Source: Mucilaginibacter pallidiroseus (GTDB taxonomy: Bacteria; Bacteroidota; Bacteroidia; Sphingobacteriales; Sphingobacteriaceae). Taken from it: 64,000 nt of DNA. The translations under genes and the position numbers were made by a program. The stretch is from the NCBI RefSeq assembly GCF_007846085.1, contig NZ_VOEJ01000003.1, positions 372,001 through 436,000 on the forward strand, given 5' to 3'. Shown piece after piece: positions 7,671 to 42,841 of this stretch (position 1 is the stretch's first letter; the number at the start of each line of letters is the position of its first letter). A model generated the notes under the pieces. That model was not told where the DNA came from, searched no databases, and was given only the letters and a program-made list of their open reading frames with translations.

Positions 7671-8993
7671 ATGAGTGATTTTTTAAAGGATATTAAGCAA
7701 GCACTAAACAACAGATTTAATTTACAGGAAGATAAAGCCGACGAGCATGAGATCATAGCATCACTGCGTAAAAATGTAGATTTCAGAGGAGCAAACTTGT
7801 GGGCATTGGTATTCGCCATACTTATAGCATCCATCGGCCTTAATGTAAATTCGACAGCCATTATTACCGGTGCTATGTTGATATCGCCATTAATGGGCCC
7901 GGTTATGGGGATAGGCCTTGGTATTGGAATTAATGATTTGGCCCTGGTTAAACGCGGTGCTAAAAACCTTTTGGTGGCCACCGTTATAAGTATTTTTACA
8001 TCGTACGTTTATTTTTTAGTGACCCCGCTGCATGAGGTACAGTCGGAGCTGTTGGCGCGCACATCTCCGTCCATCTGGGATGTATTTATTGCTTTTTTTG
8101 GTGGGCTTGTGGGTATGGTTGCCGCATCGCGCAAAGAGAAGAACAATGTTATACCAGGCGTTGCCATAGCTACCGCTTTAATGCCGCCATTGTGTACAGC
8201 AGGTTTTGGCCTGGCTATGGGCAATTGGTACTTTGTACTAGGTGCGTTTTATTTATACTTCATCAACAGCGTATTTATATCGATAGCCACATTTATGATG
8301 GCGCGGTATCTTAAGCTACAACGCACGCGTTTTGACGATGCCCGCGTTCAGAAGAAAGTAACCACCTACTTAATTATAGTTAGCCTGATTACCATTTTGC
8401 CAAGTATTTACATGGCATACCGCATTGTAAACAGAAGCATATTTGAAAGCAATGCACGTAAATACATCGATGAGCAATTTCATTTTGATAATACGCAGGT
8501 AGTGTCAAAAGCCTTCAACTATAGCCGGAAAGGTAACAGCATCGATTTATTACTCATTGGCTCGCCGCTTGAAAGTAGGCAGATAGATTCATTAAAGAAA
8601 AATCTTGACAATTATAATCTTACGGGTGTTGGGCTAAACATTCGCCAGGGGCTAAATGCCAAGCAGCAGCTGGACCTTTCGCAAATAAAGGCAAGTATAT
8701 TGGAGGATGTGTTTAGCAGGCAGGCATCAGCAGATACCGTGAAAAAAACAGCCATTGTTAAACCCCGGGCAGATAGCAATGTGCTGGCCGAGATTAAGAT
8801 TTTATTTCCTGCCGTACAATCTTTCGGTGTTACAAAGATGGGAATTCACCGTGCCGACACAAACTTGGTGGATACCCAACGGGTTGCCTTTGCACGATTT
8901 AAAACACCACTACCAAAAAATGATGAGGCCAAGCTGCGTAACTGGCTGCAAAAGCGTTATCAAAGCCCTGATTTAAAATTGGTAACACAATAA
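7671..8993 (+). CDS. DUF389 family membrane protein
   Basis: A 440-residue membrane protein of unknown function. After a ~35-residue cytoplasmic start there are five to six hydrophobic segments (residues ~44-250) containing the family's STAIITGAMLISPLMGPVMGIGLG and the glycine-rich NVIPGVAIATALMPPLCTAGFG. The C-terminal ~180 residues form a soluble domain with alternating beta/alpha character. DUF389 proteins have been linked to hydrophobic-compound or metabolite transport, but this is unproven here. It stands alone between a 220-nt upstream gap with no recognisable gene and a strong terminator. Confidence 0.85.
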   Translation: MSDFLKDIKQALNNRFNLQEDKADEHEIIASLRKNVDFRGANLWALVFAILIASIGLNVNSTAIITGAMLISPLMGPVMGIGLGIGINDLALVKRGAKNLLVATVISIFTSYVYFLVTPLHEVQSELLARTSPSIWDVFIAFFGGLVGMVAASRKEKNNVIPGVAIATALMPPLCTAGFGLAMGNWYFVLGAFYLYFINSVFISIATFMMARYLKLQRTRFDDARVQKKVTTYLIIVSLITILPSIYMAYRIVNRSIFESNARKYIDEQFHFDNTQVVSKAFNYSRKGNSIDLLLIGSPLESRQIDSLKKNLDNYNLTGVGLNIRQGLNAKQQLDLSQIKASILEDVFSRQASADTVKKTAIVKPRADSNVLAEIKILFPAVQSFGVTKMGIHRADTNLVDTQRVAFARFKTPLPKNDEAKLRNWLQKRYQSPDLKLVTQ

Positions 8994-30759: not shown

Positions 30760-31446
30760 ATGCCAGCCATGCAAAATATTAAGGTAGCTGTTGATGCAGT
30801 TGTTTTTGGGTACAACTCCAAAGATGGGCTGCAGGTGCTGCTTATTAAACGCAAAGTAGCCCCATTTAAGGATAGCTGGGCCTTACCCGGCGGTCTGGTT
30901 GGCGATGATGAGTCGCTTGAGGATGCCATCCAGCGGGAACTAAAAGAGGAAACAGGTGTCAATATAAACTACCTTGAACAGCTATACAGCTTTGGCAAAC
31001 CAAACCGCGATCCGCGCAACCGCGTTATATCCATTACCTACTATGGCTTGGTAAGGCCCGATGAGTTTGAGATTAAGGCTGATACAGATGCAGCCGAGGT
31101 TGCCTGGTTCAACTCCAAAAAACTGCCGCAATTAGCGTTTGACCACCGGGAGATTTTAACCGCCGCACATGAGCGCTTAAAGGGGAAAATACTATATCAA
31201 CCAATCGGCTTTGAACTGCTTGAGAAGAAATTCCCATTCTCCGACCTCGAGAAATTGTACATGGCAGTGCTCGACCGCGCCATTGACAGGCGTAACTTTA
31301 AAAAGAAAGTACTTAAGTACGGGTTTTTAGAGCAAACTACCGAGAAACAAGCGCATGATGGGGCTGGCCGTCCGGGTAACCTGTTCAGCTTTGATGTGGA
31401 CAAGTATTACCAGCTGCAAAAACAAGGCATCAACTTCGAGATATAA
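30760..31446 (+). CDS. nrtR: Nudix-type transcriptional regulator of NAD metabolism
   Basis: NrtR proteins repress NAD-synthesis genes and release DNA on binding ADP-ribose or related compounds. The 228-residue protein has a Nudix domain (about 5-145) with a complete box, GGLVGDDESLEDAIQRELKE followed by ETGV, so some hydrolase activity could remain. The C-terminal winged-helix part (about 150-228) has AIDRRNFKKKVLKYGFLEQT and the family's GRPGNLFSFDVDKY. It stands directly upstream of nadM-nadV-prs, whose promoter carries two palindromic sites, as expected for an NrtR target. Start at 30760 or 30769 is uncertain. Confidence 0.88.
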   Translation: MPAMQNIKVAVDAVVFGYNSKDGLQVLLIKRKVAPFKDSWALPGGLVGDDESLEDAIQRELKEETGVNINYLEQLYSFGKPNRDPRNRVISITYYGLVRPDEFEIKADTDAAEVAWFNSKKLPQLAFDHREILTAAHERLKGKILYQPIGFELLEKKFPFSDLEKLYMAVLDRAIDRRNFKKKVLKYGFLEQTTEKQAHDGAGRPGNLFSFDVDKYYQLQKQGINFEI

Positions 31447-31460
31447 AAAAGCAAAAAATA

Positions 31461-31508
31461 ATTTGCGTAATAAAACGAATATTTATATTTGCGTATAATT
31501 AACGCAAA
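31461..31508 (+). promoter_or_regulatory. Tandem NrtR-type operators over the nadM promoter
   Basis: Site 2 is a perfect 7-7-7 inverted repeat, TTTGCGT-ATAATTA-ACGCAAA (31488-31508). Site 1 (31462-31480) starts with the same TTTGCGT and has a degenerate right arm (ACGAAT). The TTTG of site 1 (31462-31465) and TATATTTG (31484-31491), 18 nt apart, form the -33/-7 promoter, so a protein bound at both sites would cover the promoter. NrtR as the binder is inference from adjacency. Confidence 0.72.
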
Positions 31509-31513
31509 TGGTC

Positions 31514-32413
31514 ATGAAAACAGCAGTTATTATTGCCCGCTTCCAAACACCCTACCTGCACCAAGGGCATAAGCAATTGATTGAAACAGTTAAGGCGCAG
31601 CACTCAAACCTTGTTGTTTTACTGGGCGTGAGCCCGGTAATGGGTAGCCGCAAAAACCCGTATGATTATTATACGCGCGAAAAGATGATTAAAAAGGAAT
31701 ACCCCGATGTTGTGGTGCTGCCGGTAAGCGATCATCCGAGCGACAGGGTATGGTCCGAAAATATCGATGCTCTGCTCAAAAGCATTATGCCCGGCGGGGA
31801 GTTTTGTTTGTTTGGCAGCCGCGACAGCTTTATTCCGTACTACTCCGGCAGGTTTGAAACCGTTGAACTGCCCGAACATGGCGATTACAACGCTACCGAA
31901 TTGCGCAGGCAATATGCTGATAAGGTTTTCGACTCGAACGACTTTAGGGCCGGCATCTTATATGCCTACTATAACCAGTACACCAAGGTTTACCCCACGG
32001 TTGATGTTGCCGTTTTCAGAAATAACAAAACCGAAATACTGTTGGGCAAAAAGGCAAACAGCAACACCTGGCGTTTTATTGGCGGCTTTGCCGACTCTGA
32101 TGACCACAGCTACGAAGCCGCGGCACAACGGGAGCTGGCCGAGGAAAGCGGGCTTACCGAAACTACAACAATGGTGTATGAATCATCGCGCAGGGTAAAC
32201 GACTGGCGGTATCGCAAGGAGGCCGATAAGATCATTACCATGCTGTTTAGCTGCGATTATATCAATGGTACACCTGCCCCGCAGGATGATATCATAGGCC
32301 TTGAATGGTTCCCGCTTACTGCTGTATTGGATATGATTGCCAACGGTAGCATAAACCCCGAACATGCCGATATGCTGAAAGCACTTACAAATAAATACCT
32401 TAAACTTGCTTAA
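31514..32413 (+). CDS. nadM: Bifunctional NMN adenylyltransferase / Nudix hydrolase
   Basis: The N-terminal domain (about 1-165) is a NadM-type nucleotidyltransferase: MKTAVIIARFQTPYLHQGHK carries the H-x-G-H ATP site, and NATELRRQYADK follows the SxTxxR position in altered form. It makes NAD+ from NMN. The C-terminal domain (about 180-295) is a Nudix hydrolase (GGFADSDDHSYEAAAQREL, then AEESGL) that may cleave ADP-ribose. I start at 31514 because the ATG at 31508 overlaps the operator. nadV begins one base after the stop, so the two act in sequence: nicotinamide to NMN to NAD+. Confidence 0.9.
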   Translation: MKTAVIIARFQTPYLHQGHKQLIETVKAQHSNLVVLLGVSPVMGSRKNPYDYYTREKMIKKEYPDVVVLPVSDHPSDRVWSENIDALLKSIMPGGEFCLFGSRDSFIPYYSGRFETVELPEHGDYNATELRRQYADKVFDSNDFRAGILYAYYNQYTKVYPTVDVAVFRNNKTEILLGKKANSNTWRFIGGFADSDDHSYEAAAQRELAEESGLTETTTMVYESSRRVNDWRYRKEADKIITMLFSCDYINGTPAPQDDIIGLEWFPLTAVLDMIANGSINPEHADMLKALTNKYLKLA

Positions 32414-32414
32414 C

Positions 32415-33836
32415 ATGAAACGCGAAAACTTGATCCTGTTAGCTGATGCTTACAAATACGCTCATCATAAGTTTTACTATCCCGGTACTACGCAAATTTA
32501 CAGCTACCTGGAAAGCCGTGGCGGCATGTTTAATGAAACCATATTTTTTGGCTTGCAATATTTTTTAAAGGAATACCTGCAGGGCCCCGCTTTTACACAG
32601 GTTGATTTAGATGAAGCCGATGAGTTTCTGTTAGAGGTTTTCGGTCGTAACGATGTGTTCGACAGGACTAAGTTTCTGTATATATTAGATAAATACAACG
32701 GGCATTTACCTGTTAAGATAAAAGCTGTTGCCGAAGGTACCGCTGTGCCGACCGGTAACGTATTGCTCACCATCGAAAACACCGACCCCGAGTGTTACTG
32801 GCTCACCAATTTCTTGGAAACCCTGCTAATGCAGGTTTGGTACCCCTGTACCGTTGCAACCCTAAGTAACCAGGTGCGTAAGGTTGTTACCCGTTACTAC
32901 GCCGAAACTGCAACCGACGGTGCCGAAGCAGGGATTGATTTTGTGTTAAATGACTTTGGCTTTCGGGGCGTAAGTAGTGTGGAGAGCGCCAAGATTGGCG
33001 GTGCGGCTCATTTAGTAAACTTCAGCGGGAGCGATAACCTTGCAGGCAGCGGCATGACAATAAAATATTACGGTGCCCAAAAGGTTTATGGCCTCAGCAT
33101 CCCGGCTACCGAGCACAGCATCTGCACGTTGCTGGGCCGTGAGGGCGAGTTGGAGGTATTTCGCCATGTGTTGCGCAGCTTCCCTACCGGCACTATCGCC
33201 TGCGTAAGCGACAGCTACAACATATTTAAAGCCTGCAGCGAGTATTGGGGCACCGAGCTTAAAGATGAAATTTTAAAGCGCGATGGTACACTGGTTGTCC
33301 GTCCGGATAGTGGCGACCCAATACGGACGTTGCTGGAAATATTCAGGATTTTGTTTGACAAGTTTGGCTTTACCACCAATGCAAAGGGCTACAAAGTGCT
33401 GCCGCCGCAAATAAGGGTAATACAGGGCGATGGCGTAAACTACACCGAAATTGGCAGGATATACGCTGCTTTAAAGGCCGATGGCATAAGTGCCGAAAAC
33501 CTGGTACTGGGTATGGGTGGTGCCTTGCTGCAAAAGGTTGATCGTGATACGCAAAAGTTTGCCCTTAAATGCAGCAGCGCCGTTATTAACGGTAAAGAAG
33601 TAGCGGTAGAAAAGAGCCCTACAGAAATGGATGCCCAAGGCAACATTACCCAAAGCTTTAAAAAGAGCAAAGGCGGCAGGTTAAAGCTCATTAAAACAGA
33701 TGGTGCATATAAAACCGTAAAGCAAACAGAATACCCAGACGTAGCCGATGAATTACACACCGTTTTCGAAAATGGCGAACTGCTAAATACCATTACATTT
33801 GAACAGGTAAGGGCCAACGCCGCACTATCATTATAA
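32415..33836 (+). CDS. nadV: Nicotinamide phosphoribosyltransferase
   Basis: NadV (NAMPT) makes NMN from nicotinamide and PRPP, the first step of direct nicotinamide salvage. The 473-residue protein begins MKRENLILLADAYKYAHHKF, typical for the family. It contains DFGFRGVSSVESAKIGGAAH and VVRPDSGDP, which match the NAMPT active site including the PRPP-contacting Arg and Asp. I start at 32415 rather than the upstream in-frame codon at 32406, which lies inside nadM. The gene lies between nadM and prs with spacings of 1 nt each, so the three are one transcript. Confidence 0.95.
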   Translation: MKRENLILLADAYKYAHHKFYYPGTTQIYSYLESRGGMFNETIFFGLQYFLKEYLQGPAFTQVDLDEADEFLLEVFGRNDVFDRTKFLYILDKYNGHLPVKIKAVAEGTAVPTGNVLLTIENTDPECYWLTNFLETLLMQVWYPCTVATLSNQVRKVVTRYYAETATDGAEAGIDFVLNDFGFRGVSSVESAKIGGAAHLVNFSGSDNLAGSGMTIKYYGAQKVYGLSIPATEHSICTLLGREGELEVFRHVLRSFPTGTIACVSDSYNIFKACSEYWGTELKDEILKRDGTLVVRPDSGDPIRTLLEIFRILFDKFGFTTNAKGYKVLPPQIRVIQGDGVNYTEIGRIYAALKADGISAENLVLGMGGALLQKVDRDTQKFALKCSSAVINGKEVAVEKSPTEMDAQGNITQSFKKSKGGRLKLIKTDGAYKTVKQTEYPDVADELHTVFENGELLNTITFEQVRANAALSL

Positions 33837-33837
33837 C

Positions 33838-34743
33838 GTGAAGAAGATTTTATTTGCCATTAAAGAGTACCAATACCTTGCCGATAAAGTGTTGGCCTGC
33901 GGTGATTTCGAAAAAGGGCAGCTGGAAGTGAGCCACTTTACCGATGGCGAGCGCTACCAGCGTATCATTTCGCCCATAGAGGGCCGCGAAGCTATTTTAA
34001 TAGGCGGCACAGTAAATGACGAAGCCACGCTTGAACTTTTCGATCTGGCATCGTCGTTAGTGAGCTATGGCGTAGATGCGTTAACGCTTGTTATACCCTA
34101 CTTCGGCTACTCAACCATGGAGCGGGCCGTACTAAGCGGCGAAATTGTGACGGCAAAAACGCGGGCCCGCCTGCTATCTGCCATTCCAAAATCAAACCGG
34201 GGCAATAAGGTTTTACTGTTCGATCTGCACTCCGAGGGTATCCAGTACTATTTCGAGCATGATTTGTACCCGGTGCATGTGTACTGTAAGGATATTGTGA
34301 TACAGGCCGCAAGGCAATACGGCGGCGATAATTTTGTAATGGCAAGTACCGATGCGGGCCGCGCCAAGTGGGTAGAATCGTTAGCGAACGATTTGGGCGT
34401 TAATGCAGCCTTTATCCTGAAGCGCCGCCTCAAAGGCGACCATATTGAAGTGAGCGCCATTAATGCCGATGTAGATGGCAAAACCATAGTTATTTATGAC
34501 GACATGATCCGCTCGGGCGGGAGCATCATCAACGCAGCCAAAACCTATAAAGATGCCGGTGCAGGCGATATTTACGTGATCACCACGCATGGCCTGTTCG
34601 TAAACAACGGCATCGAAAAACTACAAAGCTGCGGGCTCATCAAAAAACTCATCTGTACCGATACTCATGTCAACATGAACAACGTACACAACGATTTTGT
34701 CGAAGTAATAAGCATAGCCGGTTTAATCTGCAAATCGCTGTAA
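33838..34743 (+). CDS. prs: Ribose-phosphate pyrophosphokinase-like protein
   Basis: A 301-residue PRPP synthetase homologue, here probably a second copy dedicated to NAD salvage. It has a Prs-like N-domain (VSHFTDGERYQRI, then YFGYSTMERAV) and the PRPP-binding loop IVIYDDMIRSGGSIINAAK. It is more divergent than a housekeeping Prs; for example the usual ARQDRK ATP loop is not recognisable. It starts with GTG one base after nadV. PRPP made here would feed NadV directly. It is convergent with the WYL-KptA gene, 16 nt apart. Confidence 0.86.
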   Translation: MKKILFAIKEYQYLADKVLACGDFEKGQLEVSHFTDGERYQRIISPIEGREAILIGGTVNDEATLELFDLASSLVSYGVDALTLVIPYFGYSTMERAVLSGEIVTAKTRARLLSAIPKSNRGNKVLLFDLHSEGIQYYFEHDLYPVHVYCKDIVIQAARQYGGDNFVMASTDAGRAKWVESLANDLGVNAAFILKRRLKGDHIEVSAINADVDGKTIVIYDDMIRSGGSIINAAKTYKDAGAGDIYVITTHGLFVNNGIEKLQSCGLIKKLICTDTHVNMNNVHNDFVEVISIAGLICKSL

Positions 34744-34759
34744 CGAGCGTAGGTCTTAG

Positions 34760-36361
34760 CTATTTTGAAAGCGTTATAAACTCAACGGGCACAGCGTTCG
34801 TGAGCCATACTTTATTTTCTGATAAATAAAACACGAATCCCTTTTTACACATTTCTGCAGCTGATATCTTAAGTACTACCGGTTTACCGTGCCTGCTTCC
34901 TACTTGTATTGCGGTTTCAATGTCGCGGCTTAGGTGGACATGTTGACGACTGCGTTTTTCTAAGCCGCTTTTAAGAATTGACGATACCGATTTTTCGCCG
35001 GTACCATGATATAGCACATCAGGAGGCATTTGTGGTTGATATCCAAGATCAACAGCTACCGAGTGGCCCTGGCTTGCCCGTATCTTTTGGCTGGTTTCAT
35101 CAAAGGCGAACCGCTTTTTACTATTGTTTTCAACAATATGGTTTAGCAATTCGCTGTCCAAATGTTGCCCATGTAAATTGGCTTTATCAATTAACTCATC
35201 AATATTTGCCCAGCCATGTTCGTCAAGCTCAATTCCTATTAATTGCGGCTGGTGCCTTAAAACCATACTTAAAAACTTGCTTGTTTCGTTTATATATTTT
35301 TCGTTCATTTCGTTATTAGATGATTGTGGTTCCGACGATATATTATTGAACGGATCGTAATTATCTATCATTTTACGCAATTGCCCTTTTATCTGCTTAA
35401 CCAATACCCGCGGCCCAAGTACCCGCATTTTGGCTCCGAAACCAAGCAGCTCTCGTTCCAATTCAAAGTTTAATATCACCTTGATGCTGAATATGGTGCC
35501 GGTTGCATCCTCGTTTAATACCTTTTGCGTGTGATGGAGCGGTTTGGTTATCACATATGGTGCATTGTCCCGATCAATCCAGAATATTACCTCGCAATCG
35601 CGCTGCCCGGGTGTTTTGGTTACGCCAATGCAATCGTCATAATAAGTTGCCAGGTCGAGTGTTTTATTTTCTCGATAAGGTTCGTCATGCTCTTCAACAG
35701 TTTGTATCCTGTCCAATGCCAGGTTCATGATATGGGCGTTACGTTTGTGCTGCATGCCCAATACAAACCAGCGGTTGCGGTATTCTTTAAGCAGGTATCC
35801 GCTAAAGCAAAAAGTACTGGCCTCCCGTGCTTTAAAAGATTGGTAGGTAATGCAAATGGTTTTTTTAGCCACAATGGCCTTGCGTATCACTTCTATCCAT
35901 TCCAAACCCTTCAGGTTGTCGTTTTTTTCAAAATCAATTATCGGGGCGCTCTGTGTTTTTTGGGTGTATATCTTATCCTCCAGCTTGCTTACCATTTCAT
36001 TCACATCGCTAAAATGGCCAAAGCCCTTAAACTGTTTCAATAGGTCGGATACCTCGGTAAGTACCTGTATGTCCTGTTGATTAAGAGGAATATTGGTAAT
36101 ACTATAATTTTTATCGCTGTAGGTATAATACTTTTTATCCACCACAATAATTGGCGCTTCGTAACCAAGCTTATTGCTGCGCATCATCTCGATATCGGCC
36201 TGTATGGTGCGTCGGCTTACGCCGGTGTTAATGCCCTGGTACTCGTATAAGGCCTCGCCGCAGGCATCCATCAGGTCGTCAAGTGTCCACTTGCGGCGGC
36301 GGTTTTGCAGGCAGGCATCAAGCGTACGGTAGCGGATAAGGGCGTTGCGATTAACTGGCAT
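34760..36361 (-). CDS. kptA: WYL-domain transcriptional regulator fused to RNA 2'-phosphotransferase (KptA/Tpt1)
   Basis: A 533-residue fusion. The N-terminal part (about 1-345) is a WYL regulator: a winged helix (NRNALIRYRTLDACLQNRRR, then VSRRTIQADIEMM) and a WYL domain (about 150-260, with ITYQSFKAREASTFCFSGYL and RNRWFVLGMQHKRN). A linker rich in Ser/Asn (about 338-352) leads to a KptA/Tpt1 domain (about 355-533). That domain keeps FLSMVLRHQP, IRASQGHSV, YHGTGEKSV and SRQHVHLSRD, which carry the Arg-His-Arg-Arg-type residues of an NAD+-dependent 2'-phosphotransferase. It is divergent from rtcB. A regulator that also senses or removes RNA 2'-phosphates is the natural reading; that is inference. 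Confidence 0.88.
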   Translation of the reverse strand: MPVNRNALIRYRTLDACLQNRRRKWTLDDLMDACGEALYEYQGINTGVSRRTIQADIEMMRSNKLGYEAPIIVVDKKYYTYSDKNYSITNIPLNQQDIQVLTEVSDLLKQFKGFGHFSDVNEMVSKLEDKIYTQKTQSAPIIDFEKNDNLKGLEWIEVIRKAIVAKKTICITYQSFKAREASTFCFSGYLLKEYRNRWFVLGMQHKRNAHIMNLALDRIQTVEEHDEPYRENKTLDLATYYDDCIGVTKTPGQRDCEVIFWIDRDNAPYVITKPLHHTQKVLNEDATGTIFSIKVILNFELERELLGFGAKMRVLGPRVLVKQIKGQLRKMIDNYDPFNNISSEPQSSNNEMNEKYINETSKFLSMVLRHQPQLIGIELDEHGWANIDELIDKANLHGQHLDSELLNHIVENNSKKRFAFDETSQKIRASQGHSVAVDLGYQPQMPPDVLYHGTGEKSVSSILKSGLEKRSRQHVHLSRDIETAIQVGSRHGKPVVLKISAAEMCKKGFVFYLSENKVWLTNAVPVEFITLSK

Positions 36362-36559: not shown

Positions 36560-38059
36560 ATGAAAAAGGAAATAAATGAAAAGCTATCCCTTAAAGAGGC
36601 CGGGGAGCATAAAGAAAAAGTAGGAAACAACGAGCTGAAGGCACTGGGTATTAACGATGTTGATATACTGGTAAATTTTAGTCGTGTGGCTAATGGTTTG
36701 CTTAAACATGGTGTTATGGATAAGCAAACCATCCTGGCCAACCTGGAGGCGCTAATAGACGACCCTGTGCCTTACGCGCTTAAGAAAGGCGGTAAGTTTA
36801 AGAACCTTGCCGAGGCTGTGATAAACTTGCGTAAAGAAGGGCGTTTTGTAAAACAACAGCGCAGCAATTTTAAACTGAAAGAGGAGATAGCCGAGTTCCC
36901 GGTATGGGGTATGGAGCATATTGAAGTTGGTGCGTTAGCGCAAATGCGTACGGCTATCCAATTGCCCATTGCCGTTGCAGGAGCTTTGATGCCCGATGCA
37001 CACCAGGGCTACGGCCTGCCTATTGGCGGGGTGCTGGCTACAACTGCAAACACCATTATACCCTTTGCGGTGGGGGTTGATATTGCCTGCCGTATGTGCC
37101 TGAGCATATTCGACCTGCCGGCTGGTGTTATTGATACCGAGACCGACAAACTGAAAACCATTTTGGTTGATAACACCTGCTTTGGTATGGGTGGCACTAC
37201 AAAGTCGCACTTTGATACATCGTTGTTTGATAGCAAAACTTGGGGCGAAACTAAAATGATCCGTACCCTAAAGGATAAGGCTTATGCGCAGTTGGGTACC
37301 AGCGGTACAGGCAACCACTTTGTGGAATGGGGCGAACTTACTATTGCCGAAAATGCTATAGCAGATATCCCTGCAGGGCGATACCTGGCTTTGCTGTCAC
37401 ACTCGGGTTCACGTGGGTTTGGAGGTAACATAGCCAACCATTACAGCAAAATTGCCATGACCAAAACCAAGCTGCCTGCCGAAGCCAAACACCTGGCATG
37501 GCTGGATCTGGATAAAGACGAAGGGCAGGAATACTGGATAGCCATGAACCTGGCCGGCGAATATGCCAGCGCCAACCACCACGAAATTCACAATAAAATT
37601 GCGCGTGCCCTGGGTGTTAAACCTATTGCACAGGTAGAGAACCACCACAATTTTGCCTGGAAAGAGCAACTGGCCAACGGTACCGAAGTAATGGTACACC
37701 GTAAGGGTGCAACACCTGCAGGCGAAGGCGTTTTAGGTATTATTCCTGGTAGCATGAGTACCCCGGGCTTCCTGGTACGCGGTAAAGGCAATGCCGAAAG
37801 CATTAACTCGGCAAGCCATGGTGCGGGCCGGTTAATGAGCCGAAGCGCCGCATTCAGAACGCTTGATAAAGCCGCCATTGCCGCCAACCTGGTTGATAAA
37901 CGCATTACCCTGATGGGCAGCGACATGGACGAGGCCCCAATGGCCTACAAGGACATCCACACAGTAATGGCGGCGCAGGAAAATTTAGTAGAAGTACTGG
38001 CTCAATTTGAGCCTCGTGTTGTAAGGATGGCGGATGCGAGGGAGACGCCGGAGGATTAG
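36560..38059 (+). CDS. rtcB: RNA-splicing ligase RtcB
   Basis: RtcB joins RNA 2',3'-cyclic-phosphate or 3'-phosphate ends to 5'-OH ends using GTP and Mn2+, the repair step after cleavage by many ribonuclease toxins. Metal ligands are visible: Cys in GVDIACRMCLSIFD, His in GTSGTGNHFVEWGE, His in LLSHSGSRGFGGNIANHY and His in QVENHHNFAW. The guanylated histidine is in SINSASHGAGRLMSRSAA. The GKGNAES and final NLVDKRITLMGSDMDEAP, PMAYKDI blocks are typical. Length 499 aa. No archease or RtcA gene is nearby. Its promoter region is shared in sequence with that of the TROVE gene. Confidence 0.96.
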   Translation: MKKEINEKLSLKEAGEHKEKVGNNELKALGINDVDILVNFSRVANGLLKHGVMDKQTILANLEALIDDPVPYALKKGGKFKNLAEAVINLRKEGRFVKQQRSNFKLKEEIAEFPVWGMEHIEVGALAQMRTAIQLPIAVAGALMPDAHQGYGLPIGGVLATTANTIIPFAVGVDIACRMCLSIFDLPAGVIDTETDKLKTILVDNTCFGMGGTTKSHFDTSLFDSKTWGETKMIRTLKDKAYAQLGTSGTGNHFVEWGELTIAENAIADIPAGRYLALLSHSGSRGFGGNIANHYSKIAMTKTKLPAEAKHLAWLDLDKDEGQEYWIAMNLAGEYASANHHEIHNKIARALGVKPIAQVENHHNFAWKEQLANGTEVMVHRKGATPAGEGVLGIIPGSMSTPGFLVRGKGNAESINSASHGAGRLMSRSAAFRTLDKAAIAANLVDKRITLMGSDMDEAPMAYKDIHTVMAAQENLVEVLAQFEPRVVRMADARETPED

Positions 38060-38455: not shown

Positions 38456-39673
38456 ATGTCACAAGGAACAGTTAAATTCTTTAATCTCCAAAAGGGGTTC
38501 GGAAAAATACATTCTGAGGATTTTCCAAACAAGGATATTTTCATTCATTTTTCTCAAATTCAAGATGACGCAAAAATTCTTTTAGAAGATGAAATCGTAT
38601 CATTTGAAGTTGAAGAGTCCAACAAGGGCCTAAACGCTAAAAACTTACATCGCCTTACAGATAGATATATAGGAACCATTGAGGAGTTTGATAAAGGCTA
38701 TGGCTTTATCAAATCACAAGGCATAGATGATAAGTATTTTATTCATCATACAGATGTAGTTGGTAGAGGGTTTAAAAAAATAGAAGTCGGATTCGAGGTT
38801 GAATTTTCGCCAGATGTTACAGACAAGGGGTTGTTGGCAAAACAAATTGTTATTCGTGATATCAGAACCGGACTTGAAAAATTCGCTTCATTTCCTAACT
38901 GGGATGATAGTATTGCTGATTTAGCTGAGAATTTAGCTCAAAAAGAAGACGGAAATTGGGATTTTATCAATAGTAAAACGGATAGGTATCCAATTTTAGA
39001 AAGCTACTTAAAATATACTTTTTCGAGATTGCACAGAGAAGGAAAAATTAAATACACATCAACAACGGACAGGGGCCGTGAGGTTAAGTATGCCTGTTTT
39101 AATACAGGTCTTGCCACGACAAAGCAGGAAGAAATTTTTGCATATTTTGAACATAAAGACAATAATTTTCAAGCCAGATATCAAGATGGTTACCTCAAGC
39201 AACCGATTTGGATTTTTAAGATATTTGACCGGGAAAGTAATCGAATGATGAATTTCTTTGGAGAGAAGCCAGAATTAGCAAACTATTTTCAAAATGCTGC
39301 TGAACTAATTTATGACACATCTCGTCGGCTAATTCCCGATTTTGAGCATATCTTGGATGACAGAGAGAAAAGATTTCCAGAGTTATTTCGTGACTTGAGT
39401 AAAGCGCAGCAAGTCGAACGCATTAAAAGCGCAATTGATTCTGCTTTAATAAGAATTAAACGAAATTATAAAACAGCAATTCCTCAATTTTATAGCGAAT
39501 CAATTCAATTATTGCTTCCACTTTGCATTTCTACAGCTGAAACAGCTGACGTCGCCCTTGTCGTAGGCCGAGAAGGAGAGGTCTATAGGGCAAATACCGT
39601 TTTGCCTTTAGATTGGGCATATAACAACGCAAGACTATTAGCTAAACCCGATAGAGAGTGGTTAAATCCTTAA
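38456..39673 (+). CDS. Double cold-shock-domain protein with DUF3825
   Basis: A 405-residue protein with two nucleic-acid-binding OB folds in tandem: domain 1 (about 1-68) has GTVKFFNLQKGFGKIHSED and DIFIHFSQI; domain 2 (about 70-140) has GTIEEFDKGYGFIKSQG and YFIHHTDV. The rest (about 145-405) fits DUF3825, a domain found attached to RNA-binding modules: YACFNTGLATTKQEEIFAYF, PIWIFKIFD and LVVGREGEVYRANTVLPLDWAYNNARLL. The reaction is unknown; the pairing suggests action on RNA. Base composition is clearly more AT-rich than rtcB or the TROVE gene, which suggests later arrival. It lacks the CTGCGCA palindrome. Confidence 0.82.
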   Translation: MSQGTVKFFNLQKGFGKIHSEDFPNKDIFIHFSQIQDDAKILLEDEIVSFEVEESNKGLNAKNLHRLTDRYIGTIEEFDKGYGFIKSQGIDDKYFIHHTDVVGRGFKKIEVGFEVEFSPDVTDKGLLAKQIVIRDIRTGLEKFASFPNWDDSIADLAENLAQKEDGNWDFINSKTDRYPILESYLKYTFSRLHREGKIKYTSTTDRGREVKYACFNTGLATTKQEEIFAYFEHKDNNFQARYQDGYLKQPIWIFKIFDRESNRMMNFFGEKPELANYFQNAAELIYDTSRRLIPDFEHILDDREKRFPELFRDLSKAQQVERIKSAIDSALIRIKRNYKTAIPQFYSESIQLLLPLCISTAETADVALVVGREGEVYRANTVLPLDWAYNNARLLAKPDREWLNP

Positions 39674-40214: not shown

Positions 40215-41792
40215 ATGAAATTCAACCTGTTAAGCAAGCTAAAAAATCAGACCGTCAACTACGCGGGTGCCAAAGCGTTTACGCTGTCGCCCGAGATGGA
40301 ACTGTACACCGCGGTGGTTACCTGGAGCTTAAACGATTCCTTTTACGAAAAAGACGAACAGCGCATGGTGCGCCTGCGCACCCTGATAAGCAAATGCAAC
40401 CCGGTTTTTGTGGGTAAGCTGGCGGTGTATGCGCGCACTAAAATGTATATGCGTTCGGTACCGCTGGTGCTGGTTACTGAATTGGCCAAGCTGCACTCGG
40501 GCGACGATCTGGTTGCCCGGGTTACCGACGGCGTAATTGGCCGTGCCGATGAGATCACCGAACTGCTGGCCTGCTACGAAACGTTGAACAAACGCAAGGG
40601 CCCTAAAAAGCTGAACCGCCTGAGCAAACAAATGCAAAAAGGCCTGAGCATGGCGTTCAACAGGTTCGACGAGTACCAGTTTGGCAAGTATAACCGCGAT
40701 GGCGCCATTAAATTGCGTGATGCTTTGTTCCTGGTTCACCCTAAAGCAAAAGACGAATTGCAGCAGCTGTTGTATAACAAAATAGTAAACGGCGACCTGC
40801 AAACGCCTTATACCTGGGAAACTGAACTGTCGGCATTGGGCCAGCTCAATTTTGACAGTGACGAGGCCAGGGCCATAGCGTTCCGCGCAAAATGGGAAGA
40901 ATTGATAGAAAGTGGCAAGTTGGGCTACATGGCCTTGCTGCGTAACCTGCGCAATATACAGGAGGCGGGGGTAGGCTATGCACATTTCGAAAAAGTATGC
41001 AACCGTTTAGCCGATGCTGATGAAGTGGCTAAGGCAAAGCAGTTTCCGTTCCGTTACCTGGCTGCTTATCGCGAGTTAATTGCTGACGGCACCGAATCTC
41101 GTTCAAAAACCCTTGCAAAAAAAGCGCTGGCAATGCTGCAAAGCAACAAAGGCTATACCGGCCAGGTTTTGGACGCGCTTGAAAAAGCCGTACAGGCGAG
41201 TGCCGCCAATATAAAAGGTTTCGGTCATGACACCCGCGTGCTGTTAGCCTGCGATGTTTCCGGGTCGATGCAAACACCGGTATCTGCCAAAAGCAAGATC
41301 CTGTTGTACGATGTAGGCTTAATGCTGGCCATGCTATTGCAAAGCCGCTGTAAAAACGTGGAGGTAGGTATGTTTGGCGATAAATGGAAAACCATTGTAG
41401 TGCCGGGTAATAACATATTAGGTAATGTACAAAAGTTTTACAGCCGCGAGGGCGAGGTGGGTTACAGTACCAATGGCTACTTGGTTATCAAGGATATATT
41501 AAAGCGTGGGGTGCAAATGGATAAGGTATTTTTATTCACCGATGCCCAGTTGTGGAACAGCAATAACACTGCCGACCATATCCAAACCTTATGGTTGCGC
41601 TACAAGAAAGAGGTATCGCCAAACGCGAAACTCTACCTGTTCGACTTGCAGGGCTACGGACAAGCACCATTGCAAATATTGCGCAATGATGTGTATCTTG
41701 TAGCTGGCTGGAGCGATAAAGTTTTTGAGGTATTGGCTGCCTTAGAAAATGGAGGCTCGGCATTAGATGCTATAAATGAGGTGGAATTGTAA
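40215..41792 (+). CDS. rsr: Ro60-like TROVE/vWA protein (Rsr)
   Basis: Ro60 homologues are ring-shaped RNA-binding proteins that hold Y RNAs on the outer surface and bind ends of misfolded RNA in the cavity; bacterial ones work with exoribonucleases. The TROVE part (about 1-345) has NYAGAKAFTLSPEMELYTAV, CNPVFVGKLAVYAR and LGQLNFDSDEARAIAF. The vWA part (about 345-525) has the MIDAS motif in LACDVSGSMQTPV and FTDAQLW. Length (525 aa) is normal. Its regulatory region matches that of rtcB, and eight Y-RNA-like units follow 70 nt downstream on the same strand. No PNPase or other RNase lies beside it. Confidence 0.94.
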   Translation: MKFNLLSKLKNQTVNYAGAKAFTLSPEMELYTAVVTWSLNDSFYEKDEQRMVRLRTLISKCNPVFVGKLAVYARTKMYMRSVPLVLVTELAKLHSGDDLVARVTDGVIGRADEITELLACYETLNKRKGPKKLNRLSKQMQKGLSMAFNRFDEYQFGKYNRDGAIKLRDALFLVHPKAKDELQQLLYNKIVNGDLQTPYTWETELSALGQLNFDSDEARAIAFRAKWEELIESGKLGYMALLRNLRNIQEAGVGYAHFEKVCNRLADADEVAKAKQFPFRYLAAYRELIADGTESRSKTLAKKALAMLQSNKGYTGQVLDALEKAVQASAANIKGFGHDTRVLLACDVSGSMQTPVSAKSKILLYDVGLMLAMLLQSRCKNVEVGMFGDKWKTIVVPGNNILGNVQKFYSREGEVGYSTNGYLVIKDILKRGVQMDKVFLFTDAQLWNSNNTADHIQTLWLRYKKEVSPNAKLYLFDLQGYGQAPLQILRNDVYLVAGWSDKVFEVLAALENGGSALDAINEVEL

Positions 41793-41850: not shown

Positions 41851-41862
41851 TTAATTAAAAAA

Positions 41863-41983
41863 AAGGATGCCGTAGAAACGGGTTACTTCGCGCCATTAAG
41901 GGGGTGGTCAGTATAGTGCAAACTAAACTGAGGGTTCGAGTCCCTAAAGCGTTCCCCCAACCCGCTTTCGCCTGTTGCTCCTT
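41863..41983 (+). ncRNA. Y-RNA-like unit 1 (T-arm, acceptor-like stem)
   Basis: Base: AAGGA-[U bulge]-GC pairs with GC-UCCUU; internal loop CGUA / GCCUGUU; upper helix GAAACGGGUU with AACCCG-c-UUUC (one bulged C); then ACUUCG. The top resembles a tRNA in normal order: GGGGG (about 41899-41903) pairs with CCCCC (41953-41957), a D-arm-like GGTCAGTATAGTGC follows the first strand, and AGGG-TTCGAGT-CCCT is a T-arm with a consensus loop. About 121 nt. It is very similar to unit 3 in its base, suggesting recent duplication of this module. Confidence 0.85.
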
Positions 41984-41992
41984 ATAAAATAT

Positions 41993-42093
41993 AAAAGAAG
42001 GTGCCGTAAATAAGTCTTACTTCGATCGGGGCCTGTTGGCGGGCACAGCTACGCGCAGGTAATGAACGTCTTATTGCTATTAGCCCTTCTTTT
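41993..42093 (+). ncRNA. Y-RNA-like unit 2
   Basis: Base: AAAGAAGG-[U]-GC pairs with GC-CCUUCUUU (8 bp, bulge, 2 bp); internal loop CGUA / GCUAUUA; upper helix AAUAAG with CUUAUU; then UACUUCG. The top (about 42025-42069) is G/C-rich (GGGGCCTGTTGGCGGGCACA) without a consensus T-loop, so tRNA mimicry is not evident. About 101 nt, separated from unit 1 by only 9 AT-rich bases. Confidence 0.8.
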
Positions 42094-42110
42094 TAAAGCA
42101 TTAAAAATAT

Positions 42111-42236
42111 AAGGATGCCGTAGACGTGGGTTACTTCGGTCATCGGTTAGGAGGAAGTGGCATTGTGATGTAAGTTGCAATGTGGGTTCGAATCCCAAAG
42201 CAATTTCCTCACTCCCGTGTTCGCCTGTTGCTCCTT
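42111..42236 (+). ncRNA. Y-RNA-like unit 3 (T-arm, acceptor-like stem)
   Basis: Base: AAGGA-[U]-GC with GC-UCCUU; internal loop CGUA / GCCUGUU; upper helix GACGUGGG with CCCGUGU-u-C including wobble pairs; UACUUCG. The top holds GAGGAA (about 42150-42155) pairing with UUCCUC (42205-42210), an inner ATTG/CAAT stem and a T-arm GTGGG-TTCGAAT-CCC with perfect consensus loop. This is the most convincing tRNA mimic in normal order. About 126 nt. Confidence 0.85.
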
Positions 42237-42248
42237 ATAAAATTTAAA

Positions 42249-42348
42249 TTAGGTGTCGTAAATAAACCATACTTCGAACCAAAGAACCGTTGCCGGGGCT
42301 TGCCTACGTAGCGGGGATGAAATGGTTTATTGATCATTACCCTTTTTT
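42249..42348 (+). ncRNA. Y-RNA-like unit 4 (compensatory change in the base)
   Basis: Base: AGG-[U]-GU pairs with AC-CCU: the second inner pair is U-A where the other units have C-G, a compensatory change that supports the fold. Internal loop CGUA / GAUCAUU; perfect 9-bp upper helix AAUAAACCA with UGGUUUAUU (42261-42269 / 42323-42331); UACUUCG. The outer helix is shorter than elsewhere. The top (GCCGGGGCTTGCCTACGTAGC region) has no T-loop consensus. About 100 nt. Confidence 0.8.
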
Positions 42349-42365
42349 AAAGGAAACTAAAAACA

Positions 42366-42508
42366 TAAGGTGCCGTAAATGTGCGCTACTTCGGGTCGCC
42401 GGTTCGAATCCGGCCTTTGGCTCCAGGCTTTACAGCGGGCGCCATTGTAGCTCAGTATGGGTAGAGCAGTGGGCTAATTAGCTATACGCATATTGACTGT
42501 TGCCCTTA
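42366..42508 (+). ncRNA. Y-RNA-like unit 5 with circularly permuted tRNA-like top
   Basis: Base: UAAGG-[U]-GC with GC-CCUUA; internal loop CGUA / GACUGUU; upper helix AAUGUGCG with CGCAUAUU (one G-U); UACUUCG. The top contains tRNA parts in permuted order. First comes a T-arm GCCGG-TTCGAAT-CCGGC (42398-42414), then CTTTGGC-T-CCA (42415-42425), a ~15-nt linker, then GCCATTG-TA and a D-arm GCTC-AGTATGGGTA-GAGC (42441-42467). The acceptor halves pair imperfectly (five of seven). The anticodon arm is replaced by the Ro-type stem. At 143 nt it is the longest unit. Confidence 0.85.
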
Positions 42509-42516
42509 AAAAAAAC

Positions 42517-42594
42517 AAAGAAGATGCCGTAAGGCTTGCGATACTTCGTCAGTCAAACAAAGCAATAAAGGCAGGTAATCCGTAGCTCTTCTTT
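42517..42594 (+). ncRNA. Y-RNA-like unit 6 (compact)
   Basis: Base: AAAGAAGA-[U]-GC pairs with GC-UCUUCUUU (8 bp, bulge, 2 bp). CGUA and UACUUCG are both present. The upper helix is weaker (GCUUGC with GCAGGU) and the 3' internal-loop strand does not begin with G as in the others. At 78 nt it has no room for a T-arm. It may be a Ro-binding module without an effector top, like a minimal Y RNA. Confidence 0.75.
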
Positions 42595-42609
42595 CAATTA
42601 CCTAAACCT

Positions 42610-42736
42610 AAAAAGGTGCCGTAAACCGGTAATACTTCGGTATGACATTCCCCGTGGGGAAAGGTGCAGACTCGGGCTCTGCCTGTGGGAAACCGCAGTG
42701 GTCTAAAAAAAATACCGGTTGCTTTTTGCCCTTTTT
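42610..42736 (+). ncRNA. Y-RNA-like unit 7 (multi-hairpin top)
   Basis: Base: AAAAAGG-[U]-GC with GC-CCUUUUU; internal loop CGUA / GCUUUUU; perfect 8-bp upper helix AACCGGUA with UACCGGUU (42624-42631 / 42713-42720). Here the conserved UACUUCG can form its own hairpin, AUAC-UUCG-GUAU. The top has GCAGA-CTCGGGC-TCTGC (42666-42682), with T-arm geometry but a different loop, and CTGTGG-GAAA-CCGCAG with a GNRA tetraloop. About 127 nt. Confidence 0.82.
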
Positions 42737-42743
42737 AAAAATT

Positions 42744-42841
42744 ATGAAAGATGCCGTAGGCAGTTGATACTTCGCTGGTGAAACCGTTTATGCGGTAGGG
42801 TTCGACTCCCATACGGCACTTGCCGATTTTTGCTCTTTCAT
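42744..42841 (+). ncRNA. Y-RNA-like unit 8 (T-arm-like)
   Basis: Base: AUGAAAGA-[U]-GC with GC-UCUUUCAU; internal loop CGUA / GAUUUUU; upper helix GGCA with UGCC, extendable by one bulge; UACUUCG. The top holds ACCG-TTTATG-CGGT and a T-arm-like GGG-TTCGACT-CCC. An alternative fold pairs TGCCGTA near the 5' end with TACGGCA near 42813-42819. It is the last unit, and AT-rich sequence follows up to the ArsR operator. Confidence 0.8.

What the first reader, a model, noticed from the sequence alone, without database searches (positions are those of the whole stretch)
41863..42841. Tandem array of eight different Y-RNA-like noncoding RNAs directly behind a Ro60-like gene
Eight head-to-tail units of about 78-143 nt follow the TROVE gene on the same strand. 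Each begins with a purine-rich strand, bulged U and G(C/U)CGUA, then UACUUCG, and ends with a strand complementary to its start. Spacers are only 7-17 AT-rich bases. Ro60 with one or two Y RNAs is known in bacteria (Deinococcus, Salmonella YrlA/YrlB). An eight-member array with different tops would let one Ro protein be fitted with eight effector modules. I do not know of a characterised array of this size.
Basis: partly seen in the sequence, partly recalled or inferred. Interest (0 to 1): 0.95.

Follow-up and report, generated by a model that had tools for sequence, protein, structure and literature searches.

The report
Eight-RNA tRNA-mimic kit for Ro60
Directly behind a gene for a Ro60-type RNA-binding ring protein this bacterium carries eight likely small-RNA genes that share one base stem but come in six kinds, some with tops predicted to fold like tRNAs opened at different loops, which would let one protein dock onto different tRNA repair or decay enzymes.

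Summary
Eight head-to-tail units (41862-42839) follow a TROVE/Ro60 gene. All eight carry G(C/U)CGUA and UACUUCG, with 6-8 of 8 lower-stem pairs each. They are of six kinds, not eight. Such arrays mark this Ro60 branch: 42 of 56 fetched loci have two or more units and three others also have eight. The base helix covaries.

New here: many tops read as tRNAs once circularly rotated. At default ARAGORN of 150 rotated tops, 0 of 150 unrotated, 0 in ten shuffled sets. Unit 5 is YrlA-like, opened on the anticodon side. The class of unit 7 is opened in the D-loop (6 of 17 at default once trimmed; unit 7 itself only at 85%), a topology I do not know from the literature. A distant genome has nine candidate units inside RtcR-Ro60-RtcB-RtcA.

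RtcB and a WYL-Tpt1 fusion lie near by; RtcA and RtcR were not found in the genome. Likely role: exchangeable tRNA-mimic tethers for a Ro60 repair or decay particle. Expression, binding and partners are untested.

The parts
40215..41792 (+). Ro60/TROVE ring protein gene, 525 aa
41862..41984 (+). Y-RNA-type unit 1, class I top (T-arm hairpin by eye, GGGG...CCCC closure)
41996..42090 (+). Unit 2, class B top (no T-arm; nested hairpin CCUG..GGGC..GCUACG..CAGG)
42110..42237 (+). Unit 3, class I top
42248..42346 (+). Unit 4, class B top; weakest lower stem (6 of 8 pairs, 3' strand set by eye)
42365..42509 (+). Unit 5, class II top: YrlA-like, T-arm before D-arm, base joined on the anticodon side
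   Evidence: Rfam YrlA 24.7 bits, below gathering 69; ARAGORN calls a tRNA at default threshold when the top is joined to itself, opening after tRNA position 50 with the anticodon at 36
42519..42592 (+). Unit 6, class IV: base stem only, no top
42611..42735 (+). Unit 7, class III top: tRNA-like, circularly permuted with the opening in the D-loop; acceptor stem capped by GAAA (by eye); T-loop has drifted from consensus
   Evidence: (rotated: tRNA only at the 85% threshold); 87.2 bits with model R1, which was built with it
42746..42839 (+). Unit 8, class V top: GGUGA, a hairpin (by eye) and a T-arm
36560..38059 (+). RtcB-family RNA ligase, upstream, same strand
   Evidence: Pfam RtcB 277.8 bits; RtcB homologue in the fetched flanks of 24 of 56 related loci
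34760..36361 (-). WYL regulator fused to Tpt1/KptA RNA 2'-phosphotransferase
   Evidence: Pfam PTS_2-RNA 170 bits, WYL 45.7, WCX 41.9; one NCBIfam RNA 2'-phosphotransferase model above cut-off; WYL part in 26 of 56 related loci, 25 divergent
38456..39673 (+). Cold-shock domain + DUF3825 protein between RtcB and Ro60; membership in the system uncertain
   Evidence: homologue found in only 1 of 56 related loci

Best explanation
The locus encodes a Ro60-type ring protein followed by a tandem array of eight Y-RNA-type units of six kinds, whose shared, covarying base stem is predicted to bind Ro60 and whose tops, several of them predicted tRNA mimics, would act as exchangeable tethers that bring the ring to different tRNA repair or decay enzymes. 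Shown by sequence and comparison: the array, the base helix, the tRNA-like sequence of many tops after circular rotation, the different opening points (anticodon side in class II, D-loop in class III), the largely conserved order of kinds within one genus group, different tops on one base type, and the linkage to RtcB and a WYL regulator. Inferred: that the units are transcribed and cut apart; that the base binds Ro60; that the top-less unit 6 only occupies or gates the ring; that class II and III tops, whose acceptor strands are joined by a loop or linker and whose anticodon arm is opened or mostly stunted, recruit proteins that read the tRNA body; and that the particle sorts broken tRNAs towards RtcB/Tpt1 repair or nuclease decay under control of the WYL sensor.
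For: Base: 14 of 16 consensus pairs have double-sided changes in 24 class IV units; covariation score 0.857 against 0.290 in shuffles and at most 0.246 when slid (the lower stem was also used to find the units, the upper stem was not). In 17 class III units 7 of 8 upper-stem pairs have double-sided changes. Array: 213 units on the Ro60 strand, 6 on the other, in 56 loci; 42 of 56 have two or more. In an even draw of 392 phylum genomes 26 have this Ro60, and 21 of those 26 loci, held with 1.5-kb flanks, have two or more units on the Ro60 strand. tRNA mimicry: ARAGORN default of 150 self-joined tops, 0 of 150 linear tops, 0 in ten shuffled sets; openings cluster on the anticodon side (class II) and in the D-loop (class III). 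Class III: 94.1% of cells paired against 77.2% in shuffles, D-stem 3 of 4 pairs with double changes. A rotated class II top of L043 aligns across its artificial joint with tRNA-Gly and tRNA-Asp genes of other species, 81-83% identity. Ro60 fold. Repair context; in a distant genome RtcR-Ro60-nine candidate units-RtcB-RtcA. Prior knowledge (passages read): Deinococcus Rsr is tethered by Y RNA to PNPase; the Salmonella rsr-yrlBA-rtcBA operon responds to tRNA fragments (PMC7790460).
Against: No transcript, binding or partner data. Rfam has no match at gathering level in the window, and none to YrlA in seven related loci; its YrlA model finds nothing at E <= 0.001 in this genome (strict filters). 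Only a minority of tops pass ARAGORN's default; before trimming none of those is class III; at an 80% threshold linear tops (12 of 150) and shuffles (2-16 of 150) pass too, against 98 rotated. Window unit 7 passes only at 85%, has a drifted T-loop and an unpaired outer D-stem pair, as have 3 other members. Class I as a tRNA mimic is unproven: RNAalifold gave 2 pairs on the mixed alignment, no GGGG/CCCC closure in one sub-group, and the closure but no T-arm in the window's own sub-group. Classes B and IV have no tRNA features. No donor tRNA for unit 5 was found in this genome. 11 of 56 Ro60 loci have no detected unit. In relatives the WYL homologue shows no Tpt1 part, so Tpt1 may be incidental.
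Confidence: 0.6

Rival explanations
1. Decoy array: the tops are tRNA-shaped baits, held by Ro60, that soak up tRNA-cutting toxins or phage anticodon nucleases, while RtcB mends real tRNAs.
For: Several tRNA-like shapes without a free end; repair ligase beside them; patchy distribution, 26 of 392 genomes; Ro60 relatives on 9 viral contigs, 6 of them with candidate Y-RNA-like units. PMC7790460 itself raises YrlA as a possible competitive inhibitor of the anticodon nuclease.
Against: Most class III anticodon loops are stunted (3-4 nt in 12 of 17, by eye) and class II is opened on that side, so the usual cutting site is missing; class B and IV units are not tRNA-like yet recur in the order; no PADLOC match for Ro60 or RtcB.
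Confidence: 0.2
2. Permuted tRNA genes: the class II and III units are precursors that are cut, joined by RtcB and trimmed to working tRNAs, as circularly permuted tRNA genes are in some algae and archaea (recalled; only the title and abstract start of PMC3978253 seen).
For: Rotated tops are called as tRNAs; RtcB near by; one relative (L043) keeps an ACCA next to the acceptor strand.
Against: The base stem enters the anticodon side in class II; class III anticodon loops are 3-4 nt in 12 of 17 (by eye); acceptor stems are often capped by short loops such as GAAA, GUAA or UUCG (by eye); this genome already has 44 matches to the tRNA family.
Confidence: 0.05
3. Ro60 gating only: the base stems matter, because they cover the ring's RNA site, and the varied tops are interchangeable stabilisers with little function of their own.
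For: Base far more uniform than the tops; class IV units with no top are common (27 collected); different tops sit on one base type.
Against: Kinds keep a largely fixed order, with losses and swaps, across 15 loci of one genus group, T- and D-arm pairs covary, and class III recurs on a different base sequence in a distant genome.
Confidence: 0.15

Closest known systems
Salmonella rsr-yrlBA-rtcBA RNA repair operon (PMC7790460, passages read)
   Same: Ro60 gene and Y RNAs next to RtcB; a tRNA-like Y RNA present
   Different: Two Y RNAs there, eight here (nine candidates in G231); here no RtcA match and no RtcR above cut-off in the genome; a WYL-Tpt1 fusion near by instead
YrlA family, Rfam RF02553 / PDB 6CU1 (named in PMC8394870, passages read)
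   Same: Unit 5: T-arm, acceptor strands joined, D-arm order; base joined on the anticodon side
   Different: 24.7 bits against a gathering score of 69; different base motif; the other seven units are of other kinds
Deinococcus Rsr-Y RNA-PNPase particle (RYPER; PMC8394870, passages read)
   Different: A set of different tops with one Ro60; partner unknown
Circularly permuted tRNA genes (PMC3978253, title and abstract start seen)
   Same: 3' half of a tRNA precedes its 5' half
   Different: Anticodon arm opened or mostly stunted, acceptor strands joined, held on a Ro60-type base stem
Thermus phage phiLo Ro60 (PDB 9l5y)
   Different: Phage protein; no Y RNA array known to me

Membership tests
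Ro60/TROVE proteins | TROVE domain and Ro60-type vWA domain | tested here: met
   Pfam above both cut-offs
Ro60/TROVE proteins | Overall Ro60 fold | tested here: met
Ro60/TROVE proteins | NCBIfam Rsr equivalog score | tested here: not met
   40.9 bits against 900: a Ro60 relative, not a close Rsr orthologue
Bacterial Y RNAs | Encoded next to Ro60 | tested here: met
   First unit starts 69 nt after the Ro60 stop codon; 42 of 56 loci with two or more units within 2.6 kb
Bacterial Y RNAs | Ends pair into a helix with a bulge and conserved loop sequence | tested here: met
Bacterial Y RNAs | Bound by Ro60 in the cell | not testable with these tools
   needs pull-down or crosslinking
Bacterial Y RNAs | Discrete small transcripts | not testable with these tools
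   needs RNA sequencing; simple promoter and terminator scans show nothing beyond chance
YrlA (RF02553) | Rfam gathering score | tested here: not met
   unit 5 scores 24.7, gathering 69
YrlA (RF02553) | T-arm, joined acceptor strands and D-arm in permuted tRNA order | tested here: met
   unit 5, rotated, is called at ARAGORN default; alignment to the full YrlA model
RtcR-controlled rtcBA repair operon | RtcB present | tested here: met
RtcR-controlled rtcBA repair operon | RtcA cyclase present | tested here: not met
   no match in the genome; 5 of 14 control genomes ring
RtcR-controlled rtcBA repair operon | RtcR regulator present | tested here: not met
   10 matches, none over cut-off, best 323.8 against 650; aligned parts begin at profile position 124 or later
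Functional permuted tRNA gene | Usable seven-base anticodon loop | tested here: inconclusive
   class III loops are 3-4 nt in 12 of 17 by eye; in class II the base joins on the anticodon side, and the anticodons ARAGORN prints often span or adjoin the artificial joint

The most novel reading that the evidence does not exclude
Ro60 particles of Bacteroidota carry a swappable kit of tRNA mimics cut open at different places (anticodon side in class II, D-loop in class III, perhaps acceptor in class I), so that one ring shows different faces of tRNA to different enzymes. The D-loop-opened form, which keeps the GG of the D-loop and so could keep the tRNA elbow, is a tRNA-mimic architecture not previously described to my knowledge.
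Probability: 0.4. Interest if true: 0.9.

Novelty: new variant of a known kind. Interest (0 to 1): 0.78.

Why it matters
What bacterial Ro60 and its Y RNAs do is still largely open: by 2020 they had been studied only in Deinococcus, with PNPase as partner (PMC7790460), and the role of the tRNA-like top is unknown. An array that presents tRNA-like tops opened at different points on one base is a ready-made set of probes: pull-downs with each top would show which protein reads which face of a tRNA. It also ties Ro60 to tRNA repair in a genome where neither RtcA nor RtcR was found, and gives an RNA family that Rfam does not detect at gathering level in the window or in seven related loci.

Tried and rejected
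Rfam at gathering threshold: no match in the window; in seven related loci only tRNA matches. Simple promoter and terminator scan: 1 and 1 found, no more than in shuffles. Donor tRNA for unit 5 in its own genome: only the unit itself and matches with E above 0.5. In L043's own genome the best match of the rotated top other than itself was 79%; I did not check whether those are tRNA genes. Defence-system library: nothing for Ro60 or RtcB; WYL, Cas3c and cold-shock domain models matched the two neighbours. CRISPR direct-repeat matches in the array are on the minus strand, below gathering and judged chance. Mixed class I alignment: RNAalifold gave 2 pairs; sub-groups gave more but disagree. The repeat in G349 that carries the pattern was set aside as an unrelated satellite by the spacing and identity of its copies. 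A tRNA match in L045 at 7948-8127 spans two neighbouring units and was read as halves of two units, not a gene. The idea that Tpt1 is a constant partner was dropped: relatives show only the WYL part. ARAGORN at 80% was discarded for its background. Literature: Chen 2014, Sim and Wolin 2018, Sim 2020, Wang 2018 and, under the identifier I tried, Burroughs and Aravind 2016 are not held, so what they say on array size or top topology could not be checked. Searches listed nothing that by title or abstract start describes Y RNA arrays of this size or D-loop-opened mimics; that is not proof of absence.

Method limits: classes came from patterns, with 18 units of the 15 Mucilaginibacter/Pedobacter-group loci reassigned by eye; base types there were grouped by only 6 lower-stem and 5 upper-stem letters. 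The 17 class III members were chosen by eye (one search listed 18; L044 was dropped before alignment); L037 was mis-trimmed. Window unit 5 was missed by the automatic scan, because unit 4 took a wrong 3' end, and added by hand. The 56 loci were found by peptide patterns of this Ro60 and lean to close relatives; many flanks are cut by contig ends. The nine units of G231 are nine base-motif starts, eight with the CUAC-type core; their base helices were not tested.
Full report
OBSERVATION. Between the Ro60 stop (41792) and a small ArsR-type regulator gene (42968), the + strand holds eight head-to-tail units at 41862-41984, 41996-42090, 42110-42237, 42248-42346, 42365-42509, 42519-42592, 42611-42735 and 42746-42839. 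Each has, in order, a purine-rich strand, one unpaired U, G(C/U)CGUA, a second paired strand, UACUUCG, a variable top (bare loop in unit 6), and the two complementary strands. Lower stem: 6-8 of 8 pairs per unit (mean 7.5; strands taken from different units 6.2). Upper stem: 6-8 of 8 (mean 6.9; 5.6 across units, 10 of 56 mixed pairs reach 7); the script's partner for unit 8 was misplaced, and the consensus fold gives the right one. In the whole 4.25-Mb genome the strict pattern occurs 8 times forward, all here, and 0 times reverse; the pattern read backwards gives 0 and 3. Single matches of the pattern are common background: 154 of 392 genomes have at least one. ARAGORN finds no tRNA in the window and Rfam gives nothing at gathering level. 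Unconstrained folding of single units shows the base in units 1 and 7 only.

RECURRENCE. A peptide-pattern scan of one-genome-per-species contigs gave 56 loci with a Ro60 relative, 51 of them Bacteroidota by record title (counted by me). A scan for the 5' core plus a matching 3' strand found 213 units on the Ro60 strand and 6 on the opposite strand in 672,554 bases. 42 of 56 loci have two or more units within 2.6 kb, 21 have five or more, three have eight, and 11 have none. In an even draw of 392 phylum genomes, 26 have this Ro60 at E <= 1e-40, and 21 of those 26 loci, held with only 1.5-kb flanks, show two or more units on the Ro60 strand (counted from the printed rows). So the array is a trait of this Ro60 branch; eight is near the top of the range.

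BASE HELIX. In 24 top-less units (class IV) RNAalifold recovers six pairs, the bulged U, two pairs, an internal loop with CGUA, and eight upper pairs; 14 of 16 pairs show changes on both sides. Covariation score 0.857 against 0.290 in shuffles and at most 0.246 when partners are slid; 93.8% of cells paired against 65.5%. The lower stem was part of the search that found these units, so its percentage paired is biased; the upper stem was not. In 17 class III units the upper stem has double-sided changes in 7 of 8 pairs.

KINDS OF UNIT. I sorted units into classes by patterns, with corrections by eye. The window reads I-B-I-B-II-IV-III-V: five tops and one bare stem. Fifteen loci of the Mucilaginibacter/Pedobacter group, the window included, largely keep the order I, B or II..., II, IV, III, V, with losses and swaps. 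One base type carries top B in 5 loci and class II in 7: tops are exchanged on one base. Class II reads T-arm, joined acceptor strands, D-arm, the order of YrlA; window unit 5 matches Rfam YrlA at 24.7 bits (gathering 69) over the full model. Class III in its clear members begins with GG(U)UAGA(A/G)C, the 3' half of a D-arm, then a short anticodon-like arm, a T-arm, acceptor strands joined by a short loop, and ends with UAG(U/C)UCAG, the 5' half of a D-arm; the window, L009, L016 and L017 form a sub-group with GGUAUGA and a weaker D-stem. The base stem thus enters a tRNA through its D-loop; the GG on its 3' side is invariant in all 17. In these 17, 94.1% of the cells of upper, D and T stems pair against 77.2% in shuffles; D-stem 3 of 4 and T-stem 4 of 5 pairs show double changes; the outer D pair is unpaired in 4.

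ROTATION TEST. If a top is a circularly permuted tRNA, joining it to itself should make a tRNA appear. ARAGORN at default of 150 self-joined tops, 0 of 150 as they stand, and 0 in each of ten shuffled sets of 150; at a 90% threshold 67, 0 and 0-1; at 80% it loses meaning (98, 12 and 2-16). With window unit 5 added and one top containing N removed, 34 of 149 pass at default, nearly all class II and none class III, and 68 at 90%, with openings at tRNA positions about 22-28 (mostly class III) and about 29-50 (mostly class II). So class II is opened in the anticodon loop or somewhat 3' of it; unit 5's opening is read after position 50. With class III trimmed to the D-halves, 6 of 17 pass at default, 11 at 90% and 12 at 85% (window unit 7 among the last), against 0, 1 and 1 unrotated; shuffles gave none in 340 down to 90%; in the seven hits at 95% the opening lies after tRNA position 15-17. 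A rotated class II top from L043 aligns over about 62 bases, across the artificial joint, with two tRNA-Gly(gcc) genes of one other species (83%) and with tRNA-Asp(gtc) genes of two more (81%); shared tRNA consensus sequence contributes to this. Against: the rotated window unit 5 found no donor in its own genome.

OTHER TOPS. Class I (units 1, 3) has a T-arm-like hairpin inside GGGG...CCCC. The mixed alignment folds poorly (2 pairs); one sub-group folds a T-arm and a second arm but not the closure; the window's own sub-group folds the closure but not the T-arm. An acceptor-joined tRNA mimic is possible, not shown. Class B (units 2, 4) folds as nested hairpins with no T-arm. Class V (unit 8) has a T-arm and, by eye, another hairpin.

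CONTEXT. Upstream lie RtcB (36560-38059), a WYL-WCX regulator fused to a Tpt1/KptA RNA 2'-phosphotransferase (34760-36361, minus) and a cold-shock-DUF3825 protein. RtcB is within the fetched flanks of 24 of 56 loci and the WYL part of 26 of 56; 25 of those 26 WYL homologues are divergent to Ro60, 13 within 400 bp of its start. Relatives show no Tpt1 part in these matches; in this genome the fusion is the only Tpt1 match. No RtcA is found in this genome and no RtcR over cut-off.

A DISTANT PARALLEL. A class III covariance model run over 392 phylum genomes hit 8. The three strong hits (81-104 bits) all lie in Ro60 arrays; of these the window was in the model and only G122 is a clearly independent case. 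Four hits at 42-45 bits also lie beside Ro60 genes and were not classified. The last (46.4 bits, G231) led to a different arrangement: RtcR (811 bits, cut-off 650), a Ro60 relative, nine candidate units with a GAAUGC base motif, an RtcB-family gene, RtcA. Its fifth unit is opened in the D-loop (after position 18) and is called a tRNA at default after rotation, not before; four of the five hand-cut tops tested pass at default. So large arrays and the D-loop-opened form are not confined to this genus. Rfam's YrlA model passes its cut-off in 3 of 392 genomes, G231 among them.

MECHANISM. Known from passages read: Deinococcus Rsr is tethered to PNPase by Y RNA, and the Salmonella operon is switched on by broken tRNAs (PMC7790460; PMC8394870). 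I infer that the eight RNAs load onto Ro60 through the base; that the top-less unit gates the ring; and that tRNA-like tops, whose acceptor strands are joined and whose anticodon arm is opened or mostly stunted, recruit proteins that recognise the tRNA body, so that Ro60 can hand damaged tRNA to RtcB or to a nuclease. None of these steps is shown here. Decoys for tRNA nucleases, plain gating, and permuted tRNA genes are the rivals.

NOVELTY. Y RNAs beside Ro60, tRNA-like YrlA, and their place in RNA repair operons are known. New as far as I can tell, with the key papers not held: arrays of eight or nine, the D-loop-opened class, exchange of tops on one base, and the WYL-linked version in a genome without RtcA or RtcR. 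I call it a new variant of a known kind.

Noticed in passing
L181:449-9449 (genome G231): RtcR, Ro60 relative, nine candidate Y-RNA units, RtcB-family gene, RtcA in a G+C-rich distant phylum member; one more unit than the window, with another base motif.
   Followed up: partly
window 30760-36361: A likely NAD salvage cluster (Nudix protein by eye, NMN adenylyltransferase-like/Nudix below cut-off, nicotinate phosphoribosyltransferase above cut-off, PRPP synthetase-like gene) ends 16 bases from the WYL-Tpt1 gene; Tpt1 enzymes use NAD+ (recalled)..
   Followed up: no
window 38456-39673: Cold-shock domain fused to DUF3825 between RtcB and Ro60; homologue in only 1 of 56 related loci.
   Followed up: partly
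L164-L172: Nine viral contigs encode a Ro60 relative (28-29% identity); candidate Y-RNA-like units lie upstream of it on 6 of the 9, e.g. L172 at 3585 with a class II-like top, but none was found on the two contigs of about 420 kb.
   Followed up: partly
L009, L010, L012-L016, L018, L020, L056, just after the Ro60 stop: A strong hairpin (about AAGTATGGGG...CCCCATACTT, varied in L009, L015 and L016) lies between Ro60 and the first unit; possible attenuator or processing site.
   Followed up: no
G349:C22:35028-35604: A repeat, mostly of 68 bases, whose copies contain GCCGTAGAGACGCGATACTTCG; same motif, apparently unrelated to Ro60, for which this genome has no match.
   Followed up: no
L024, about 5 kb upstream of Ro60: In this Prevotella MAG most of the array sits upstream of the Ro60 gene; one bare unit lies right behind it.
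   Followed up: no
L028, L033, L035, L036, L059 class I units: T-loop variant GGUGCAAAUCC; with the GC-rich stretch and CCC downstream it is reminiscent of cobalamin riboswitch cores (recalled resemblance only).
   Followed up: no
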